Source of the DNA: Rheinheimera sp. EpRS3
GTDB taxonomy: Bacteria; Pseudomonadota; Gammaproteobacteria; Enterobacterales; Alteromonadaceae
NCBI RefSeq assembly: GCF_001513785.1
Contig: NZ_LNQS01000001.1
Coordinates: forward strand, 868,001 to 932,000
Length of the DNA stretch: 64,000 nt
Direction: 5' to 3'
Shown one piece after another: positions 9,957 through 19,550 of this stretch. Positions within the stretch are counted from its first letter, which is position 1, and each line of letters starts with the position of its first letter. The notes beneath the pieces were generated by a model. That model worked only from the letters and a program-made list of their open reading frames with translations, did no database searches and had not been told where the DNA came from. Made by a program: the position numbers and the translations under genes.

Positions 9957-11024
9957 ATGAAATTTGCTGTTGGCCGTACCTCACAATCACAACAACCGGT
10001 AGCTGCAGCGCCTGGCAGTGCTGCCAGCGCTGCTTTACAGCAAAGTAGCCGGCAACAACAACAGGCCCGCCAGCTGCAGGCGCTAAAACACAGTAAAGCT
10101 GCTTTGATTCAGCACAAGCCAGATGAAAGCACGGTAAGCCAGCAAGCTGCGCTGGAAGATGAAGAGCCTATGCAGGGCAAGTTTGAAACAGCGCAAAAGA
10201 TGGGCCTGGAAGACGAAGAGCTAATGCAAGGCAAGTTTGATGCGACAGTGCAACGGCAGCCGGATGAAGAGGAGCCGTTACAGGGAAAGTTTGAGCCTGG
10301 CGCTGTTAATCAGCGTCAGGCAGATGCGGCACCAGCTAATAACACCGGTATGCCGGATCAGTTAAAAAGTGGCATTGAAAGTTTGTCCGGCTACGTGATG
10401 GACGATGTAAAAGTGCACTACAACTCGGCTAAACCGGCACAAATGCAGGCACATGCCTATGCGCAGGGCTCCGATATCCATATAGCGCCGGGGCAGGAAC
10501 AACATCTGCCACACGAAGCCTGGCATGTAGTGCAGCAAAAGCAGGGCCGGGTACAAGCCACCACCCAGCTAAAAGGTGAAGCAATAAATGACGATCCTGG
10601 CCTGGAGCATGAAGCTGATGTGATGGGGGCAAAGGCGCTGAACGCTGCTCAGGTAACCACACAATTATCGTCTGCTGTCCACAGTAGGCTGGTGCCAGGT
10701 TGTGTAGCACAAAGAGAAGTCGTTGCCGGCACTTTGGTTGTAAATGAGGGAGGCTACCCATGTTTTGCTTACGATGGCAAAAAATATCATATAGATGAAA
10801 ATGAACCGAAACATGTTACATGTGATACCGACGGGAGAACACATTACTATTTCGAAGGGAGTGGTACCGATATAGTTGGCAATGTCGGTCCGGGGAAAAA
10901 TAAGAAATCAAAGCAGCAGATAAAATTTAAGTTTGAAGCTCTACCTGCTGGTGTGCAGTCTTTTATTAAAAATAACTACAACGCAATAGTTAATGCTGTT
11001 GAAAAAGGTGTTATTGCAGTGTGA
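9957..11024 (+). CDS. DUF4157 eCIS-associated protein with variable C-terminal tail (candidate cargo/toxin)
   Basis: 355 residues; good site AAGGAAACC before ATG 9957. Residues 1-60 are Gln/Ala-rich and disordered-looking. Residues 66-118 carry three acidic repeats (EDEEPMQGKF, EDEELMQGKF, DEEEPLQGKF). Residues 132-228 are a DUF4157 domain with the zinc-metalloprotease-like HEAWH at 186-190 and a downstream HEAD (218-221). DUF4157 is the best-known eCIS cargo-associated domain. From about residue 250 the protein changes: codon use becomes AT-richer, and the 100-residue tail (DGKKYHIDENEPKHV, GNVGPGKNKKSK) matches nothing I recognise. That is the layout of a polymorphic effector with an exchangeable tip. 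Whether HEAWH self-cleaves the tail is inference. Confidence 0.85.
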   Translation: MKFAVGRTSQSQQPVAAAPGSAASAALQQSSRQQQQARQLQALKHSKAALIQHKPDESTVSQQAALEDEEPMQGKFETAQKMGLEDEELMQGKFDATVQRQPDEEEPLQGKFEPGAVNQRQADAAPANNTGMPDQLKSGIESLSGYVMDDVKVHYNSAKPAQMQAHAYAQGSDIHIAPGQEQHLPHEAWHVVQQKQGRVQATTQLKGEAINDDPGLEHEADVMGAKALNAAQVTTQLSSAVHSRLVPGCVAQREVVAGTLVVNEGGYPCFAYDGKKYHIDENEPKHVTCDTDGRTHYYFEGSGTDIVGNVGPGKNKKSKQQIKFKFEALPAGVQSFIKNNYNAIVNAVEKGVIAV

Positions 11025-12354: not shown

Positions 12355-13269
12355 ATGACACATATATTCGATGATAAACAATACAGTGGTATTGAGCTGT
12401 TTTGTCTGGCGGTAGAGGCGGGCAGTTTTACTAAGGCGGCACTTCATGCCGGTATCACACCGGCCGCCGTAAGCCGGTCGATATCCAGGCTGGAAGACCG
12501 GCTGGGCGTCAGGCTGTTTGTCCGTACCACCCGGCAAATCCGGCTAACGGATAACGGCCAGCGCTATTATCTGCAATGCCGCGATGCACTGGCGCAGTTG
12601 GCAGAAGCTGAGCGCGAAGTCAGCGGTGGGCAGGTCGCGCCAGCTGGGATGTTGCGGCTCAGTGCGCCGACGCCCTATGCGCATTTTCGCTTGCTGCCGT
12701 TATTGCCGCAGTTCAGGCTGCTTTATCCCGATGTGCAGTTTCATCTGCATCTGGGTAACCGCAATATTGATTTTGCAGCCGACAATATTGATCTGGCCAT
12801 TCGGATGCGCGATCCGAAAGACTCCGGCCTGATCGCCCGTAAACTGGAAGATGCCGAACTGGCAACTGTGGCAGCACCGTCGTACTTGCGCCGGGCCGGC
12901 ACGCCAACCCGGCTGGACGAGTTACAACAACATGACTGTCTGCAATTTGAGTTACCCAGCACCGGTAAAGCCATCAACTGGCCATTTATGCAAAACGGCC
13001 GGCAGGTAGAGATAGAAACCCGCGGCAGTTATCACTGCAGTGACGATTTATTGGGCGTGGTAACTTTAGCAAAACAAGGGGGCGGTATTATTCAGACATA
13101 CCGTTTTATGTTTGAACGCGAGCTGGCGCAAGGCGAATTGGTTGAGTTGCTGTCACAGCACAGTGGCACATCGCGGCCGGTGTATCTGTTATATCCGCAT
13201 GCCCGGCATGTGCCGCTCAGGCTGCGGGTGTTTATTGATTTCCTGTTGGCACGGCTACAACAGCAATAA
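12355..13269 (+). CDS. LysR-family transcriptional regulator
   Basis: 304 residues. The N-terminal winged helix-turn-helix (FTKAALHAGITPAAVSRSISRLEDRLGVRLFVRT, split over residues 25-60) is typical LysR, followed by an effector-binding domain (LRLSAPTPYAHFRLLPLLPQF). The family activates or represses a divergent neighbour using a small co-inducer. Here the divergent gene is the SDR/tautomerase pair, with a 142-bp shared intergenic region (12213-12354). Start ATG 12355 is preceded by a GGAG about 10 bp upstream. The sequence resembles the large group of LysR regulators that sit next to quinone reductase, SDR and similar stress genes. Target is inferred from position only. Confidence 0.92.
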   Translation: MTHIFDDKQYSGIELFCLAVEAGSFTKAALHAGITPAAVSRSISRLEDRLGVRLFVRTTRQIRLTDNGQRYYLQCRDALAQLAEAEREVSGGQVAPAGMLRLSAPTPYAHFRLLPLLPQFRLLYPDVQFHLHLGNRNIDFAADNIDLAIRMRDPKDSGLIARKLEDAELATVAAPSYLRRAGTPTRLDELQQHDCLQFELPSTGKAINWPFMQNGRQVEIETRGSYHCSDDLLGVVTLAKQGGGIIQTYRFMFERELAQGELVELLSQHSGTSRPVYLLYPHARHVPLRLRVFIDFLLARLQQQ

Positions 13270-13329: not shown

Positions 13330-13752
13330 TTAAAGCAGTCGCAGGGTCACAGCAACATTATCGCGGGTGGCTTTAGAGTAGGGGCAAATCTGATGAGCTT
13401 TTTCGGTGAGTTGGTTTGCCAGCAGAGGATCTAACCCCGGTAGGCTAATATTGAGCCGTACTTGCAAAAAGAAGGCATTGTTTGTTAAACCCAAATCAAT
13501 TTCTGCATCAACAGCCGTATCTGCAGGCAGCGTAAGATTAAGCTCCGCTGCAGCTTTGCTCATGGCGCCAATAAAACAGGCAGACCAGCCAGCGGCCAAC
13601 AACTGCTCCGGATTAGTACCGGGGCCTGCTGAGCCCGGGGCCGACAGTTTAACCGCTAAGCGGCCATCAGAGCTGTGAGACTCGCCATTGCGACCGCCGG
13701 TGGTGTGCGTTTTGCCGGTGTAAACAACTTTTTCAATTGCAGTAATCATCAT
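13330..13752 (-). CDS. ohr: organic hydroperoxide resistance protein Ohr (OsmC/Ohr family)
   Basis: 140 residues, the normal Ohr length. The peroxidatic cysteine is in AAGWSACFIGAM (about residue 60) and the second cysteine in HQICPYSKATRDN (about 125), the thiol pair that reduces organic hydroperoxides using lipoylated partners. Starts MMITAIEKVVYTGKTHTTGGRNG, typical of Ohr. AAAGGAAAG lies just upstream of the double ATG, so 13752 and 13749 are equally possible. Convergent with the LysR gene. An OhrR-type regulator is not seen nearby. Confident identification. Confidence 0.95.
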   Translation of the reverse strand: MMITAIEKVVYTGKTHTTGGRNGESHSSDGRLAVKLSAPGSAGPGTNPEQLLAAGWSACFIGAMSKAAAELNLTLPADTAVDAEIDLGLTNNAFFLQVRLNISLPGLDPLLANQLTEKAHQICPYSKATRDNVAVTLRLL

Positions 13753-13898
13753 TCTTTCCTTTCAGTGGTGAGTGGCTTGCGCATTAAAAGCGCTGTCGGG
13801 TTGTCACAACCCGATAGGAGTTAGTTTTTCATTTCAATGTACTTGCGATATGTCCCGATCAGGCTCTGATGTAATGTTTTGTAGTTGCCAGCCTTACA

Positions 13899-13947
13899 GA
13901 TACAGAGTGATACAAATCCACTGCTTCTCCGATACGTTGCGGATACA
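13899..13947 (+). promoter_or_regulatory. four-site GATACA array upstream of the bufferin operon
   Basis: GATACA at 13899, GATACA at 13909, GATACG at 13931 and GATACA at 13942: two pairs with 10-11 bp spacing, 32 bp between pairs. A TTAATA that could serve as -10 lies at 13958-13963. The same array with almost the same spacers is found in front of the DoxX/ferric-reductase operon (17446-17493). Tandem half-sites one helical turn apart are the usual layout for OmpR-family regulators, and one is encoded at 18813-19550. The region 13753-14053 contains no gene that I can support. Confidence 0.7.
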
Positions 13948-14053
13948 AGCGTAGGGCTTAATAGCTCTACCCGAACAAGCAGAGTTTGTTCGGCAACACG
14001 CCATCTTGGCATCAGCACGCGGACATGCCGCGTTACATATCTGGAGAAACAAC

Positions 14054-14515
14054 ATGTCTCGTAATCACTCTTTAAAAACAACTCGTTTAGGATTTATGGC
14101 AGTTGCCTTAGTGGGTGCTGTGAATCTGAGCTCCGCTGCTTTTGCAATGGACTCTTTACCTCAAGGTTACCAACTGACGACTTTAGTGAAAGTGGGTGAA
14201 GGTAAATGTGGCGAAGGCAAATGTGGTGCAGCAGAAAGCAACACTAAAGTAGCGGCAACGGAAGGAAAGTGCGGCGAAGGTAAATGTGGTGATGCCTCTT
14301 TTGCAAGCACCGATACCGATGGTGACGCTCTTGTTTCACGCAAAGAGTTCCTGGCAGTAGCCCCAACCCGCGCCAGCGATTTTAATACCATTGATACCGA
14401 TAAAGATGGCTTTATCTCTGAACTGGAAGCCTACAACTACCTGAAAACTGTGTATGAGAGCAATGGCAAAGCAGTGCCAAAAGACTTGTTTACCAGCCTG
14501 AATCAGACCAACTAA
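14054..14515 (+). CDS. bufA: bufferin/HvfA-type RiPP precursor with EGKCG motifs and EF-hand tail
   Basis: 153 residues from ATG 14054 (GGAG 8 bp upstream). A Sec signal peptide ends at about residue 31 (AFA-M). The core has four EGKCG motifs (residues 49-53, 54-58, 70-74 and 75-79), the pattern whose cysteines are converted by MNIO enzymes into oxazolone/thioamide-type groups in HvfA and related copper-binding peptides. Unusually, the C-terminus has two EF-hand loops: D87-T-D-G-D-A...E98, with Ala instead of Gly at position 6, and a textbook D114-T-D-K-D-G...E125. A secreted metallophore with calcium-binding domains is my reading. Precursor class is secure from motifs and neighbours; metal and EF-hand role are inference. 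Confidence 0.88.
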
Positions 14516-14537
14516 TTCAACAGTTGTTCTGCGAACG

Positions 14538-14572
14538 GCCTCCGCCATGCTTGTGCTGTCGGGGGCTTTTTT
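14538..14572 (+). terminator. attenuating hairpin between precursor and maturation genes
   Basis: Imperfect 7-bp stem GCCTCCG / CGGGGGC (one G:U pair), 15-nt loop, followed by TTTTTTATTT. It sits 23 bp after the precursor stop and ends just before the GAGGAG site of bufB. A partial terminator here would give more precursor than enzyme. Confidence 0.6.
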
Positions 14573-14589
14573 ATTTGAGGAGAGAACGG

Positions 14590-15423
14590 ATGACTACACG
14601 TCCTGCTTTACAAGGTGCTGGCCTTGGTTTACGCCGGGGTTTATTGCCTGAATTACTGACTATGGATACCCATGCGGTTGATTTTCTTGAATGTGCGCCG
14701 GAGAACTGGATAGATGTCGGTGGTGCCTATGGCCAGCAGCTGATGAGCCTTGCGGAGCGTTTTCCACTGAGCTGTCATGGCTTGTCTTTGTCCTTAGGGG
14801 GGCCTGCGCCACTGGATATGCAGTTACTGCAACGCACCCGTGCTTTTCTTGACCGTTATCAGGTGCCTCTGTTCAGTGAGCATCTGAGCTATTGCTCCGA
14901 TGAAGGCCATTTATACGATTTACTGCCCTTGCCCTTTACGGACGAAGCCGTTTTGCATGTGGCTGCGCGTATTCGTCAGGTGCAGGAGGTGCTTGGGCGA
15001 CGTATTGCGGTGGAGAATATCTCTTATTATGGTGCGCCTTTTCAGGCTTTGGCTGAAATTGAGTTCTTAAAGGCGGTGATGAGCGAAGCCGATTGTGACT
15101 TGCTACTTGATATCAATAATTTATATGTGAACTCCATCAACCATCGTTATGACGCATCGGCTTATCTGGCGGCGCTTCCGGCTGAACGGGTGGTGTATAT
15201 GCATGTGGCGGGTCACTATGACGAAGCAGCTGATTTGAAGATAGACACTCATGGTGCGCCTGTAAAAAACGATGTCTGGAGTTTACTGCGTCAGGCTTAT
15301 CAGCGCTTTGGGGCTGTGCCGTCGTTGCTGGAACGGGACTTTAACTTTCCGCCCTTGTCAGAGCTATTGGGCGAGGTATCACAGATACGTCAGTTGCAAC
15401 AGCAGGGAGTCCGCCATGAATAA
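14590..15423 (+). CDS. bufB: MNIO-type (DUF692) RiPP maturase, BufB/HvfB-like
   Basis: 277 residues from ATG 14590 behind GAGGAG. A TIM-barrel DUF692 protein: the family binds two or three iron atoms and uses oxygen to rewrite cysteines in peptide precursors. Putative metal ligands are all visible: H63 (CHGLSLSLG), E97-H98 (SEHLSY), E142-N143 (VENISYY), D174/N176 (LDINNLYVN), H205 and H209 (HVAGH), D219/H221 (DTHG) and E248 (LERDFNFP). It follows the EGKCG precursor and overlaps the DUF2063 partner by 8 bp, which is the standard order. Acts in the cytoplasm before export. Identification is secure; the product structure is taken from studied relatives. Confidence 0.95.
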
Positions 15424-16168
15424 GACCTTAGAGCAGCAATTACTTTGTCTGGCGCATTATGTGCGCGACCCTGCAGGTTCTGCCGCCCCGCCAGGGATGG
15501 AGCCACGGCGTCTGGCGGTTTACCGCCGCTTGTTTTATGGCAACATCGAAGCCATGCTGGCCTCAGGCTTTCCGGTGCTGTGTGCCAGCCTTGGCTCTGC
15601 CGACTGGCATCGGCTGGTGCAGGATTTTTATGCCCATTACTGCAGTCAAACGCCTTTATTCACCGAACTTGCCTCTGAGTTTGCGCTCTATCTGGAGCCG
15701 GGTGTGACTGAACAAGGTGTCGCTGAGCGTTTAAAACTACCGCTGTGGCTGGCCGAGCTTGCGCATTATGAGCAGGTCGAGACGGTGTTGCTGCTTAGCA
15801 ATGCTCAGCACTCTGCAGTTAATCCAGAGACTGAACTGCTGGATACTGTGCTTGTGCTCTCTGAATTGGCCTGGCCTTTAGCGTACCAGTGGCCGGTCTG
15901 TGATATTGGTCTTGGTTATTTGTCAGAGCCGCCTTTGCCAGAGCCAACTTTGCTGCTGGCACAGCGCAAAGCGGACCATAAAGTTCACTTCTCCCGCTTG
16001 GCTCCTCTGGCTTATACTCTGCTGATATCTGTGCAGCAACAGCAGTGGACAGGGCGACAGCATCTGGCCGCACTGGCAGATAGCATGGGGGTCGCACTGG
16101 AAGCGGTTTTACCTGCAGGCAAAGCGCTGCTGGAACAGCTGCATCAGCAGGCAGTTATTTCGGGCTAG
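15416..16168 (+). CDS. bufC: DUF2063 RiPP maturation partner, BufC/HvfC-like
   Basis: 250 residues from ATG 15416 (GGGAG upstream, 8-bp overlap with bufB). It begins with a helical DUF2063 N-terminal module ([24 protein letters not shown] and [31 protein letters not shown] patterns). In the family this module binds the MNIO enzyme and presents the precursor. The C-terminal 120 residues are less conserved. No catalytic motif is expected. A longer frame beginning at 15272 would lie inside bufB and is rejected. A strong shared hairpin (16181-16212) ends the operon. Confidence 0.92.
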
Positions 16169-16180
16169 ACACTGAAGCAT

Positions 16181-16212
16181 AAAAAAGGGCTGAAGATAAT
16201 TTCAGCCCTTTT
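16181..16212. terminator. bidirectional terminator between bufC and the doxX-like gene
   Basis: Stem AAAAGGGCTGAA / TTCAGCCCTTTT (12 bp) with a 6-nt GATAAT loop; A-rich left and T-rich right flanks let it work on both strands. Confidence 0.88.
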
Positions 16213-16242
16213 GCGACCTGCAGTACAGCAATTAATTGAGTA

Positions 16243-16743
16243 TCAACTGCGCTTACGCAGCAGGGCATCCACACTTAACCGGCCTGAGCCTTTGAGCAGC
16301 AGGAAAAATAACCCGACCATATAAATCAACGGTAATTTGTAGTTGCCATAGCCTTTATTGCTGATGGAGTAGCCCATAGCCAGCTCTGACAAGCTGGACC
16401 ACTCCGCCGGCCAGTGCACGGCAGCGGTCGCGACTATAGTCAGTACGATAAGTACGAGGCTTGCCAGACGGGTACCAAAGCCAAGCAGTATCAAAACCGG
16501 TGCTATTAACTCCGCCCACATCGACAACTGCCAGTTCAGGTTGACCGGCAACAGATTAAACGGCAGAGGAAAGTTTGACTGGATTTGAGCAAACCAGTTC
16601 TCGCCATTCCATTTCTCAAGACCTGCATCAAAAAACTCCCAGACCAGAAACAGGCGTAGTGGAATATCGGCCAGCCACAGCCCCACTGAATTCAGCGAAG
16701 CAGATAAAGTTTTTGTCAGGGAATTCACAGAATAAATCATCAC
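16243..16743 (-). CDS. DoxX-family membrane protein (HvfX-like)
   Basis: 166 residues with four predicted membrane helices. The DoxX signature is clear: [20 protein letters not shown], then a [23 protein letters not shown] segment and a C-terminal [29 protein letters not shown]. DoxX-like proteins often accompany MNIO/bufferin clusters (HvfX in NCBI naming), where they may handle electrons or metal at the membrane. It overlaps the upstream ferric-reductase-like gene by 4 bp, so the two are one operon on the minus strand, and it faces the bufABC operon across a shared terminator. Confidence 0.88.
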
Positions 16744-17372
16744 ACAGCTCCAATTTTTGCTGATTTACGGGCACGTACTGCTACTTTTGCCGTGAGCTTT
16801 AACACAATGGCCGACACCATGATGCTGAACGCAATCAGGTACCACGGGTGCAGCGGAATACGTTTATAAAACGAGTAACAAAACAGAGCGGCGATAACCC
16901 AGCTACCGGTTGAGTGCAGCAGTTTCCAGGCGCTGAAACCCAATAGCCGGACCATCACAGGGAAAGAGGTCACGGCAAGCAACAAAATAAACAGATAGCC
17001 GACAGAGCCGGGAATATTGGCGGCAGCGGTGCGGCCATTCCAGAAGGTTTCAGGAAACATATTGGCATAAATCAGGATCAGAATGCCGTGCACCAGATGA
17101 GAAAACGCGAAAGACAAGCCGAGAAACCGCCGTTCCCGGAGTAACGCTTTGGTGCGGCCGGTTGGCACCAGCGTTGCCAGCGAAGAGGCTAAAAATGTTA
17201 GTAAAAACAGTGCAAAGGAGGTTCGGGCGGTGACACGAATAGCGCTGCGTAATGCCTCCACTAACTCGCTATGCCACAGCATGGTACTGGTCGCAAACAA
17301 CAGCACAGTTAAAGACAGCAGCGAAAATAACGTCCAGCCACGCAGGCCGGCCCCGGAGTTGGGATAAGTCAT
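16740..17372 (-). CDS. ferric-reductase-like transmembrane protein
   Basis: 210 residues with about six membrane helices. Histidines placed as heme ligands of the ferric-reductase/MsrQ-like family are visible: [10 protein letters not shown] in the third or fourth helix and KLLHSTGSW in a later one. No FAD/NAD domain follows, so it is a heme-only membrane module that would need an electron partner; the coupled DoxX-like protein is a candidate. Transcribed first in the two-gene operon, with the GATACA array at 17446-17507 in its promoter region. Could pass electrons across the membrane to a metal or quinone; the substrate is unknown. Confidence 0.75.
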
Positions 17373-17445
17373 GGACAGGATCCTTCAGGTTAAGCGCGGC
17401 CGGCGGGATGCAGCAGCTGCTTCACTGTCCATTTTGTCTGTCGGC

Positions 17446-17507
17446 TGTATCCTCAGTGTGTCTGTGATCCGGTCTTTTGTATCTTTGTGTATCTGCGTTT
17501 TTGTATC
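17446..17507 (-). promoter_or_regulatory. GATACA array upstream of the ferric-reductase/DoxX operon
   Basis: Read on the minus strand in the direction of transcription: GATACA (17493-17488), GATACA (17483-17478), GACACA (17462-17457), GATACA (17451-17446), with spacers of 4, 15 and 5 bp. The array before bufA has spacers 4, 16 and 5. A fifth copy at 17507-17502 touches the 3' end of the sensor-kinase gene. Ten bases after the last site is AAAATG, which could be a weak -10. The match argues for one regulator acting on both operons. Confidence 0.7.
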
Positions 17508-18807
17508 ACCTGTTGTGAGGCAACACTAAATTTGCGCACAGCCCGCCTTCTGCACGGTTGTATAAGGTCAGACGACCGCCAAGTGCCTGGCTGAGTTGCT
17601 GCGCTATCGCCAGCCCCAAACCGGTGCCGCCGGTATCACGGTTACGTGAACTTTCGACGCGGTAAAAAGGTTGCAGCACCTGTTCCAGTTCAGCTTCTGG
17701 TATACCAGGTCCGTTATCCAGCACCTGCAGCTGGATGCCGGACGCGGTGCTTTGCACCGTTAATTCGGCACTGCCGCCAAATTTCAGCGCGTTATCTGTC
17801 AGATTGGTCAGAATACGGCGTAGCGCATGGGGTCTGGTGTTGATCACTGCTGCTGTGCTGCCATTGAGGCTGACGGCCTGGCCGCTGTCCTGATAATCAC
17901 AAACTAAACTGTCGAGAAACGCATCAAGGTCAATCCGGCATGCCGGTTCAGCCGTTGTATCTATACTGCGGGCGTAGGCTACACCTTCTCTGACCAGATG
18001 TTGCATTTCACTTAAATCACTCCACAACTTGTCTTTTTCCTCCGGGTTATCCATTTGCTCTACCCGCAATTTCATCCGCGTGATAGGCGTTTGCAGATCA
18101 TGAGAAATAGCGGCTAATAACTGCATCCGTTCTTTCAGATAAGTGCCGATACGGCCTTGCAGCGTATTAAAAGCCCTGGCGGCATACACCACCTCACTGG
18201 GACCTTTTTCATCCAGTTCCGGACCTGGCGCATCGGGGGCCAGTTGATCAACAGCCTGTGCCAGACGGGTTAGCGGCCGAATGGCCATATGCACAGCCAG
18301 CCAGATGCAACCCAATAACACCAGCAGTTGCAGAATCAGCACCACAGGCAACCACTGTGCTACAGGTATGGCCCCGGGAGTGACATCCAACGTTAATAAC
18401 TTGCCGTCACTTAATGTCATATGCACCTGAAAGTGGGGCCGTGATCCAGGCATCGTCTGAAATACAGGTTCGAATCGATTGGCAACGGTTTGAGCAATAG
18501 TCAGAGCTGCCATAGGGGGCTGTTGCATATCCATAGGCTCGCCGGTGATGGGCTGATCCAGCAAATAGCGATAGTTTCCTCTTTCCACTAAAGGTAACCA
18601 GTTCGCTCTTTCTTCTGCCGGTAATCTGTCAAGCAGTGCCACTGCAGTACTGACATCTGTCGACAAATTATTCAGCATCACGTTACGGCCGGTTTGGTAG
18701 CGCTCGTAAAATTGCGAGCTGAACGACAAACCATACGCCAGCACCAAACCAACAAGTAAAATTAATGACAGACGGGCGGCCAGACTCTGCGGCATAAGTA
18801 ATCGCAT
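17506..18807 (-). CDS. two-component sensor histidine kinase (HAMP, EnvZ/CusS type)
   Basis: 433 residues from ATG 18807; a TTG at 18816 overlapping the regulator stop is an alternative. Order: TM helix (10-30), about 125-residue periplasmic sensor, second TM (about 155-180), HAMP, H-box AAISHDLQTPITRMK, N-box LTNLTDNALKFG, and G-boxes DNGPGIP and TGGTGLGLAIAQQL. All catalytic boxes are intact. The sensor has a methionine cluster (PMDMQQPPM), which could touch a soft metal such as copper, but that is a guess. Forms a tight pair with the upstream response regulator; its last bases overlap the operator of the next operon. Confidence 0.93.
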   Translation of the reverse strand: MRLLMPQSLAARLSLILLVGLVLAYGLSFSSQFYERYQTGRNVMLNNLSTDVSTAVALLDRLPAEERANWLPLVERGNYRYLLDQPITGEPMDMQQPPMAALTIAQTVANRFEPVFQTMPGSRPHFQVHMTLSDGKLLTLDVTPGAIPVAQWLPVVLILQLLVLLGCIWLAVHMAIRPLTRLAQAVDQLAPDAPGPELDEKGPSEVVYAARAFNTLQGRIGTYLKERMQLLAAISHDLQTPITRMKLRVEQMDNPEEKDKLWSDLSEMQHLVREGVAYARSIDTTAEPACRIDLDAFLDSLVCDYQDSGQAVSLNGSTAAVINTRPHALRRILTNLTDNALKFGGSAELTVQSTASGIQLQVLDNGPGIPEAELEQVLQPFYRVESSRNRDTGGTGLGLAIAQQLSQALGGRLTLYNRAEGGLCANLVLPHNR

Positions 18808-18812
18808 GGCGA

Positions 18813-19550
18813 TCAATCTGTTTCAAGCAGTTGCAACGGTAAGGTAAAAACATAACCTTCGTTACGCACTGTTTTTATACAAGCTGCTTCCCGGGCATCG
18901 TCACGCAAACGCTGACGTAAGCGGCTGACCAGTAGATCGATGGAACGGTCAAAAATGTCAGCTTCACGCCCTTGAGTCAGGTTCAGTAATTGCTCACGGC
19001 TGAGCACCCGCTGCGGATGATCGAGAAACACCCGCAATAACCGGTACTCTGCGCCGCTTAACGAAACGATAGTGTTTGCTGTATCAAGCAGATGCCTGGC
19101 ACTCGTATCCAGCCGCCAATTGCCAAAGCCAATTAACCGGCTGCTTTCGGTGATTTGCAGGTTTGGCGGCAACATGCGGGTGCGCCGCAGTACCGCATTG
19201 ATCCGTGCCAGCAGCTCACGGGCCGAAAAGGGTTTGGTCAGATAGTCATCGGCACCCATTTCCAACCCGACGATGCGATCGGTTTCGTCGCTGCGGGCGG
19301 TCAGCAGCAATACCGGAATGGCTTTATGTTTGCTGCTGCGCAATTCACGGCAAAGCCGTAAGCCATCATCACCCGGCATCATAATGTCCAGTACGATAAA
19401 ATCCACAGTATTGGCGTCGAGAAAAGCGCGCATTTGCCGGCCATCGGCTGCCAGGCTGACCCGCATGCCGTTTTTTGTCAGGTAGCTGCCTACCAATTCA
19501 CGGATTTCTCTATCGTCATCGACGACCAAAATATGTTCCATATGCTGCAT
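18813..19550 (-). CDS. OmpR-family response regulator
   Basis: About 245 residues from ATG 19550 (AAGG 6 bp upstream); starts at 19541 or the longer frame to 19607 are possible. Receiver domain with acidic patch VVDDDRE and phospho-acceptor Asp in VLDIMMPGDDG, Thr in LLLTARS, Lys in YLTKPFS. The C-terminal winged helix (LSGAEYRLLRVFLDHPQRVLSREQLL, EADIFDRSIDLLVSRLRQRL, VRNEGYVF) is typical of OmpR/CusR. It probably binds the two GATACA arrays and so controls bufABC and the DoxX operon. Confidence 0.93.
   Translation of the reverse strand: MQHMEHILVVDDDREIRELVGSYLTKNGMRVSLAADGRQMRAFLDANTVDFIVLDIMMPGDDGLRLCRELRSSKHKAIPVLLLTARSDETDRIVGLEMGADDYLTKPFSARELLARINAVLRRTRMLPPNLQITESSRLIGFGNWRLDTSARHLLDTANTIVSLSGAEYRLLRVFLDHPQRVLSREQLLNLTQGREADIFDRSIDLLVSRLRQRLRDDAREAACIKTVRNEGYVFTLPLQLLETD

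What the first reader, a model, noticed from the sequence alone, without database searches (positions are those of the whole stretch)
13899..17507. Identical four-site GATACA operators on the bufferin operon and the DoxX/ferric-reductase operon
Seen directly: two regulatory regions, 3.5 kb apart and on opposite strands, share GATACA-4-GATACA-15/16-GA(T/C)AC(A/G)-5-GATACA. Inner pairs are spaced one helical turn, and pairs three turns. A response regulator gene lies beside them and the kinase gene ends on the second array. Inference: this two-component system governs a regulon of RiPP synthesis plus membrane redox proteins.
Basis: partly seen in the sequence, partly recalled or inferred. Interest (0 to 1): 0.85.

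Follow-up and report, generated by a model that had tools for sequence, protein, structure and literature searches.

The report
Two-component operator on copper-peptide and redox genes
A bacterial sensor pair very probably switches on two neighbouring gene sets, one making a copper-binding modified peptide and one making membrane redox proteins, through the same four-part DNA switch, and that switch travels with the sensor pair across distant bacteria.

Summary
It behaves as the operator of the adjacent OmpR-type response regulator. A scan of genome contigs for the array alone returned 47 loci; 14 were not tandem repeats, and 6 of those carry this regulator, 2 of them betaproteobacteria. In 40 regulator loci the 10/11, 31/32 and 42-bp spacings recur. 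A -10-like hexamer sits at one fixed offset after 23 representative arrays, which fits PhoB-like activation. The regulon is small and local: hvfABC; a weakly MsrQ-like membrane gene plus hvfX; possibly ohr. In other proteobacteria the same system sits with CcdA/TlpA, Ohr and alpha/beta-hydrolases. Four of 40 betaproteobacterial loci also carry a bufferin cluster, one with a clear array before it. The signal (copper, peroxide or thiol oxidation) is inferred, and binding was not tested.

The parts
13899..13947 (+). Array A: four half-sites GATACA-4-GATACA-16-GATACG-5-GATACA, upstream of hvfA
   Evidence: 24 of 24 site positions invariant in 4 Rheinheimera-type promoters against 16 of 25 spacer positions
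13957..13962 (+). -10-like hexamer CTTAAT, offset 10-15 after the last site
   Evidence: fixed offset across 23 representative arrays
17446..17493 (-). Array B: GATACA-4-GATACA-15-GACACA-5-GATACA, upstream of the MsrQ-like gene and hvfX
   Evidence: conserved in four other Rheinheimera-type loci (third site GACATA there) and, in the same geometry, in Herminiimonas and Massilia
17431..17436 (-). -10-like hexamer CAAAAT (GATAAT in G029), same offset
17502..17507 (-). Fifth GATACA overlapping the kinase stop codon; not conserved in G029
13838..13885 (-). Weak third array facing ohr (ACTACA-4-ATTACA-15-GACATA-5-AGTACA); suggestive only
   Evidence: nominal P 0.019 here, 0.0045 in L092, 0 of 2000 shuffles in L114, 0.076 in L104, 0.61 in G029
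14054..14515 (+). HvfA-family precursor (two [10 protein letters not shown] motifs) fused to an EF-hand region
14590..15423 (+). HvfB-family MNIO maturase
   Evidence: NCBIfam 427.1 bits, cut-off 360
15416..16168 (+). HvfC-family partner (DUF2063)
   Evidence: 240.9 bits, cut-off 142
16243..16743 (-). HvfX-family DoxX protein
   Evidence: 139.8 bits, cut-off 80
16740..17372 (-). Membrane protein, weakly MsrQ/ferric-reductase-like
   Evidence: MsrQ 23.7 bits, cut-off 130; no Pfam or PDB-sequence match; predicted model too poor to use
17506..18807 (-). Sensor histidine kinase, EnvZ/RstB-like, below cut-offs
18813..19550 (-). OmpR/PhoB-type response regulator, the proposed array-binding protein
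13330..13752 (-). Ohr-family peroxiredoxin, a recurrent neighbour of the system

Best explanation
The arrays are operators of the neighbouring OmpR/PhoB-type response regulator. When the membrane kinase senses envelope stress it phosphorylates the regulator. Two head-to-tail dimers then bind the array, one on sites 1-2 (10 bp apart) and one on sites 3-4 (11 bp apart), all on one face of the DNA over four helical turns. Sites 3-4 lie over the -35 region, and a -10-like hexamer starts 10 nt after the last site, so RNA polymerase is recruited as in PhoB class II activation. In this genome the system turns on two operons: hvfABC, which makes an HvfA-type modified peptide expected to bind copper, and the MsrQ-like gene plus hvfX; ohr is a possible third target. 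Shown by comparison: the array, its geometry, its link to this regulator, the -10 position and the genes behind it. Inferred: binding, activation and the signal, most likely oxidative or copper damage to periplasmic thiols and methionines.
For: Array-only scan of genome contigs: 47 loci, of which 33 are regular tandem repeats; 6 of the 14 others carry a regulator orthologue (cut at the locus edge in L104), including Massilia horti (58% identity) and Herminiimonas contaminans (70%). Array with up to 3 mismatches in 8 genomes: 12 hits, 11 of them exact and at regulator loci, reversed controls 0. In 20 genomes (19 sampled from Herminiimonas's family, plus Massilia): 14 hits in 12 genomes, 12 of the 14 within 3 kb of a regulator, controls 0. 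Spacing spectrum in 20+20 loci peaks at 10, 11, 31, 32 and 42 bp. In 40 loci 31 arrays (4 being the same place in a second register) against 0.2 shuffled. In 8 plasmid loci, arrays in 8 of 8, 0.1 shuffled. TATAAT match at offset 10-15 averages 3.91 of 6, best of 1000 shuffles 2.17. Site positions invariant 22 of 24 against 4 of 24 spacer positions from Rheinheimera to Massilia. DNA-binding domain among the nearest to OmpR and RstA; the RstA box TACA-N6-TACA (PMC4117788, passages) is contained in GATACAN4GATACA.
Against: No binding or expression data. Exact-form pairs are found in only 5 of 20 loci of the farther regulator clade, and in 17 of 20 of the closer one; arrays at score 19 or more are found in 20 of 40 loci of the closer clade, so the motif drifts. 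In one search, 8 of 20 genomes had no hit and two of 14 hits lie far from the regulator. Nine of 23 representatives lack AAT at the -10 position; it is two bases off in Herminiimonas and poor in L269. Twelve relatives of 46-60% identity (L041-L052) had no GATACA pair in the 20 kb fetched.
Confidence: 0.87

Rival explanations
1. The arrays are repressor operators: the regulator blocks both operons until the signal releases it.
For: Sites 3-4 lie close to the promoter, and some OmpR-type regulators repress from such places (recalled).
Against: The array ends at a constant distance upstream of the -10, the geometry of PhoB-type activation (recalled).
Confidence: 0.08
2. Another regulator (the LysR-type gene at 12355-13269, or a global factor) binds the arrays, and the response regulator is a bystander.
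For: The LysR-type gene ends about 630 bp from array A and is kept beside the system in G029.
Against: Arrays follow the response regulator across alpha-, beta- and gammaproteobacteria, while LysR matches were seen in 5 of 40 betaproteobacterial loci and were weak (25-35%). The motif has the direct-repeat form, 10-bp period, of OmpR-family sites such as the RstA box (PMC4117788, passages).
Confidence: 0.04
3. The array belongs to hvf-type clusters in general, whatever regulator is near.
For: Array A precedes hvfA in four Rheinheimera-type loci.
Against: Of 30 other hvfB loci of the genus examined (1.5 kb each side, the second copy of this genome included), 28 show no GAYACR pair and two only a GACACA pair. 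G029 lacks hvf beside the system yet keeps array B.
Confidence: 0.01
4. The array is a chance or mobile-repeat feature.
For: 33 of 47 scan hits are simple tandem repeats.
Against: 0 of 100 shuffles; two places only in the genome; spacers diverge while sites are kept.
Confidence: 0.005

Closest known systems
RstA/RstB of enterobacteria and the RstA box (PMC4117788, abstract and passages read)
   Same: OmpR/PhoB-family regulator; tandem TACA repeats of 10-bp period; each DNA-binding domain takes one site
   Different: Regulator and kinase score far below the RstA and RstB model cut-offs; four sites of 10-21-11 spacing; different targets
PhoB and the pho box (recalled)
   Same: Direct repeats over the -35 and a fixed distance to the -10
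   Different: Sequence of the sites (recalled as TGTCA), signal and targets; PhoB model cut-off not met (212.4 of 296.2)
HprRS-MsrPQ and CusRS of E. coli (start of the abstract of PMC9302797 in the search listing; rest recalled)
   Same: Two-component control that couples periplasmic oxidation repair (MsrPQ) with copper stress
   Different: The MsrQ-like protein here is only weakly related; the RiPP genes are new to the scheme
MNIO RiPP clusters: bufferins, Buf_EGKCG/oxazolins, HvfABC-X (PMC12452194, passages read)
   Same: Precursor, MNIO, DUF2063, DoxX; EGKCG-EF-hand fusions and ferric-reductase neighbours are described there
   Different: That paper reports sigma-factor and NrsF genes in Buf1 clusters; the words two-component and response regulator do not occur in its main text

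Membership tests
OmpR/PhoB-family response regulator | Receiver domain plus winged-helix Trans_reg_C domain | tested here: met
   Response_reg 112.1 bits, Trans_reg_C 75.1 bits, both above cut-off
RstA (NCBIfam NF007977) | Curated equivalog score of 330 bits | tested here: not met
   173.9 bits
RstA | Binds TACA-N6-TACA | not testable with these tools
   Sequence compatible only; no binding assay
OmpR equivalog (NF007005) | Curated score of 331 bits | tested here: not met
   244.1 bits
PhoB-like class II activation | Array end at a fixed distance upstream of the -10 | tested here: met
   offset 10-15, 3.91 of 6 against at most 2.17 in 1000 shuffles; activation itself not tested
HvfABC-X copper-RiPP cluster | Precursor with EGKCG motifs, HvfB, HvfC and HvfX above cut-offs | tested here: met
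   domain NF050137 38.4 (cut-off 19.5), HvfB 427.1, HvfC 240.9, HvfX 139.8; the HvfA equivalog itself is not reached (35.3 of 95)
HvfABC-X copper-RiPP cluster | Peptide is modified and binds copper | not testable with these tools
   none
MsrQ | Curated score of 130 bits | tested here: not met
   23.7 bits; model too poor to compare folds

The most novel reading that the evidence does not exclude
A two-component family without a name in the literature searched, spread by horizontal transfer through alpha-, beta- and gammaproteobacteria, runs a compact envelope thiol/peroxide-defence module through one fixed four-site operator, and has on separate occasions taken MNIO copper-peptide clusters of different types (EGKCG in Rheinheimera, Buf1/Buf2 in Burkholderiales) under its control. 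MNIO metallophores would then be part of a periplasmic oxidation response, not only of copper buffering.
Probability: 0.5. Interest if true: 0.75.

Novelty: new variant of a known kind. Interest (0 to 1): 0.6.

Why it matters
For MNIO peptide clusters the regulators named in the passages read of PMC12452194 are sigma factors and NrsF in Buf1 clusters. A dedicated sensor pair with a defined operator makes the inducing signal directly testable with a reporter. It also ties copper-peptide synthesis to periplasmic thiol and peroxide repair, and gives a DNA pattern by which regulated members can be found in other genomes.

Tried and rejected
RstA membership: rejected on model cut-offs, though the box resembles the RstA box. 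A wide regulon: not found in this genome for the two array spacings at up to 3 mismatches; other spacings were not searched genome-wide. 'Array is an hvf feature': rejected. Fold comparison of the MsrQ-like protein: the prediction had mean pLDDT 46, so no fold search was run; no PDB sequence match. A search of 295 genomes of the order with that protein found it only here (G029, which has it, was not in that draw). Metal-binding residues in the kinase sensor part: by eye, no conserved cysteine in the periplasmic part of 18 aligned kinases, so direct copper sensing through cysteine has no support. Donor of the system: the tree puts the Rheinheimera regulators inside a Burkholderiales clade, but rhizobial and Methylobacterium plasmid copies, not in that tree, are closer by identity (up to 79.7%), so the donor is left open. 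Degenerate arrays before the bufferin genes in L241 and L273 (scores 17.8 and 17.5) do not exceed shuffles and are not counted; L262 has none there.

Literature; none of their listings showed a paper on this array or system, in a library without most subscription journals.
Full report
What is there. The window holds, in order, a LysR-type gene (+), ohr (-), hvfABC (+), hvfX and a weakly MsrQ-like membrane gene (-), then a sensor kinase and a response regulator (-). Array A stands before hvfA and array B before the MsrQ-like gene. The full array pattern is found twice in the window and in none of 100 shuffles. GATACA alone is also over-represented (34 against 18.5 +/- 3.9); 27 of the 34 lie outside the arrays. 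In the whole genome GATACAN4GATACA is exact only at these two places, and the four-site pattern in its N15 and N16 forms with up to 3 mismatches finds nothing else there.

Close relatives. Of 30 other genomes of the genus searched with the regulator, only G029 has the orthologue, at 98%; the others' best matches were far weaker (E near 1e-50 to 1e-60, near 45% identity where listed). G029 keeps regulator, kinase, MsrQ-like gene, ohr and LysR gene in that order but has no hvfABC or hvfX between them. It keeps array B with all four sites, the third as GACATA, and has no GAYACR pair at its own hvfB locus elsewhere. Three further named loci (Rheinheimera faecalis YR1, Rheinheimera sp. W122, and the MAG MM_PW_MetaG.mb.44) have both arrays and the same gene set, though ohr is partial in the MAG and its regulator is cut by the locus edge. 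Across the four A promoters 24 of 24 site positions are invariant against 16 of 25 spacer positions. Across five distinct B-type promoters reaching Herminiimonas and Massilia it is 22 of 24 against 4 of 24. The genus name is inferred from these named relatives. An HvfB is present in 30 of 31 genomes of the genus; the window copy is an additional one, 54% identical to this genome's other copy. In the regulator tree G029 is sister to the window (100/89), so loss of hvf in G029 is likelier than a late gain, but this was not tested formally.

Blind test. The array pattern was scanned over genome contigs with no protein guidance: 47 loci. By script, 33 are regular tandem repeats and 14 are not. Of these 14, six hold a regulator orthologue: the three double-array loci, G029's record, Massilia horti and Herminiimonas contaminans. 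The other 8 of 14 gave no match to the regulator in the DNA held. In 8 genomes, allowing 3 mismatches, the N15 form gave 8 hits (7 exact, plus one 3-mismatch place with other spacing in G095 beside a protease-like gene) and the N16 form gave 4, all exact; reversed-pattern controls were 0.

Betaproteobacteria. The Herminiimonas regulator matched 173 of 245 genomes of its family at E <= 1e-75. In the 30 loci returned, GAYACR pairs at 4 or 5 bases number 32 against a shuffled mean of 0.33 and maximum of 2 in 100. In 20 loci of the closer clade and 20 of the farther one, start-to-start spacings peak at 10 (16 and 5), 11 (13 and 0), 31 (3 and 6), 32 (4 and 9) and 42 (4 and 1), with background near 0.1; pairs were present in 17 of 20 and 5 of 20 loci. 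In those 5 loci of the farther clade the pair faces away from the regulator, toward a divergent gene; in Massilia, and in L041 without an array, that gene has a Spy/LTXXQ domain. In 20 whole genomes 14 array hits were found in 12 genomes, 12 of the hits within 3 kb of a regulator and two far away. In 40 loci of the closer clade, 31 arrays scored at least 19 of 24 (4 of these being the same place in a second register) against 0.2 per shuffled set; 20 of 40 loci have one. By tblastn, TlpA-like genes lie in 32 of 40, CcdA-like in 25 and Ohr in 18; some loci are cut short by contig ends. Pair boxes lie 48-59 bp before the regulator in L187, L194, L195 and L197, which suggests autoregulation.

Link to copper peptides outside the genus. 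Four of the 40 loci (L241, L262, L269, L273) carry a bufferin cluster within about 7 kb of the regulator, read from translations and tblastn. Family searches were run on proteins of two: in L262 they gave a DUF2282 precursor, BufA2 (89.7, cut-off 60), BufB (376.8, cut-off 310), DUF2063 and DoxX, with the HvfC and HvfX models below their cut-offs; in L269 the one protein tested is a DUF2282 precursor. In L269 an array scoring 22.7 (best of 40 shuffles 20.2) stands directly before that precursor gene. In L241 and L273 only degenerate arrays are seen, no better than shuffles, and in L262 none.

Plasmids and alphaproteobacteria. Plasmid records hold relatives up to 79.7% identical, 239 records at E <= 1e-60. 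Eight of these loci were fetched, seven alphaproteobacterial and one from Cupriavidus: CcdA/TlpA in 7 of 8, Ohr in 6 of 8, arrays in 8 of 8 against 0.1 per shuffled set, and no MNIO match in any of the 8. L276 also has MsrA.

Promoter geometry. From 37 arrays, 23 representatives were kept after dropping 14 near-identical ones. The match to TATAAT downstream of the last site is 3.91 of 6 at offset 10-15. No other offset exceeds 2.35, and the maximum over offsets in 1000 shuffles is 2.17. AAT stands at 13-15 in 14 of 23. Herminiimonas is shifted by two bases and L269 has a poor -10. This signal was not used to define the arrays and argues for activation from a site over the -35 region.

Mechanism and signal. 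The DNA-binding domain is among the nearest to OmpR and RstA structures, and RstA boxes are tandem TACA repeats of the same period (PMC4117788, abstract and passages). Two dimers on a four-turn array is the simplest reading. The target and neighbour genes point to periplasmic oxidation and copper: CcdA/TlpA for thiols, Ohr for organic peroxides, MsrA in one locus, Spy-like chaperones in the farther clade, HvfA and bufferins for copper (bufferins raise growth under copper stress: start of the abstract of PMC12452194 in the listing). In E. coli, MsrPQ, copper stress and Spy are linked (starts of the abstracts and titles of PMC9302797 and PMC12503329 in the listing). The signal is inference.

Weak points. 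Binding and expression are untested. Identification of the 16740-17372 protein is weak. The weak array facing ohr is nominally significant in three of five loci, which are homologous to each other. Shuffles keep base composition only.

Noticed in passing
G000:C8:82299-83111 and 29 other hvfB loci of the genus: Nearly every genome of the genus (30 of 31) has an hvfB; in the 30 loci examined besides the window's copy there is no GATACA pair within 1.5 kb (two show a GACACA pair), so a genus-wide copy and a regulated extra copy coexist here.
   Followed up: partly
L142:12121-12136 (Herminiimonas contaminans): A second, two-site GATACA box before a GFA-domain gene that precedes the regulator; relatives show the same box opposite an array facing CcdA/TlpA, a two-way promoter region.
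   Followed up: partly
L149 (G095:C4:5847-5894): GATACA-4-GATACA-4-GATACG-5-GATACG near a subtilisin-like protease gene (name by eye), on another contig than G095's regulator; a different spacing.
   Followed up: no
L108:368-4734: In Massilia horti the regulator-kinase pair is followed by a HlyD-type adaptor (Pfam) and an RND-type pump (by eye).
   Followed up: no
window 9957-11024: ORF with a HEAWH motif and long low-complexity N-terminal part, resembling DUF4157-type proteins (recalled, not searched); unrelated to the finding.
   Followed up: no
L040:12329-12496: In G029 the stretch before ohr directly follows the MsrQ-like gene, which suggests where hvfABC and hvfX were lost or inserted.
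   Followed up: partly
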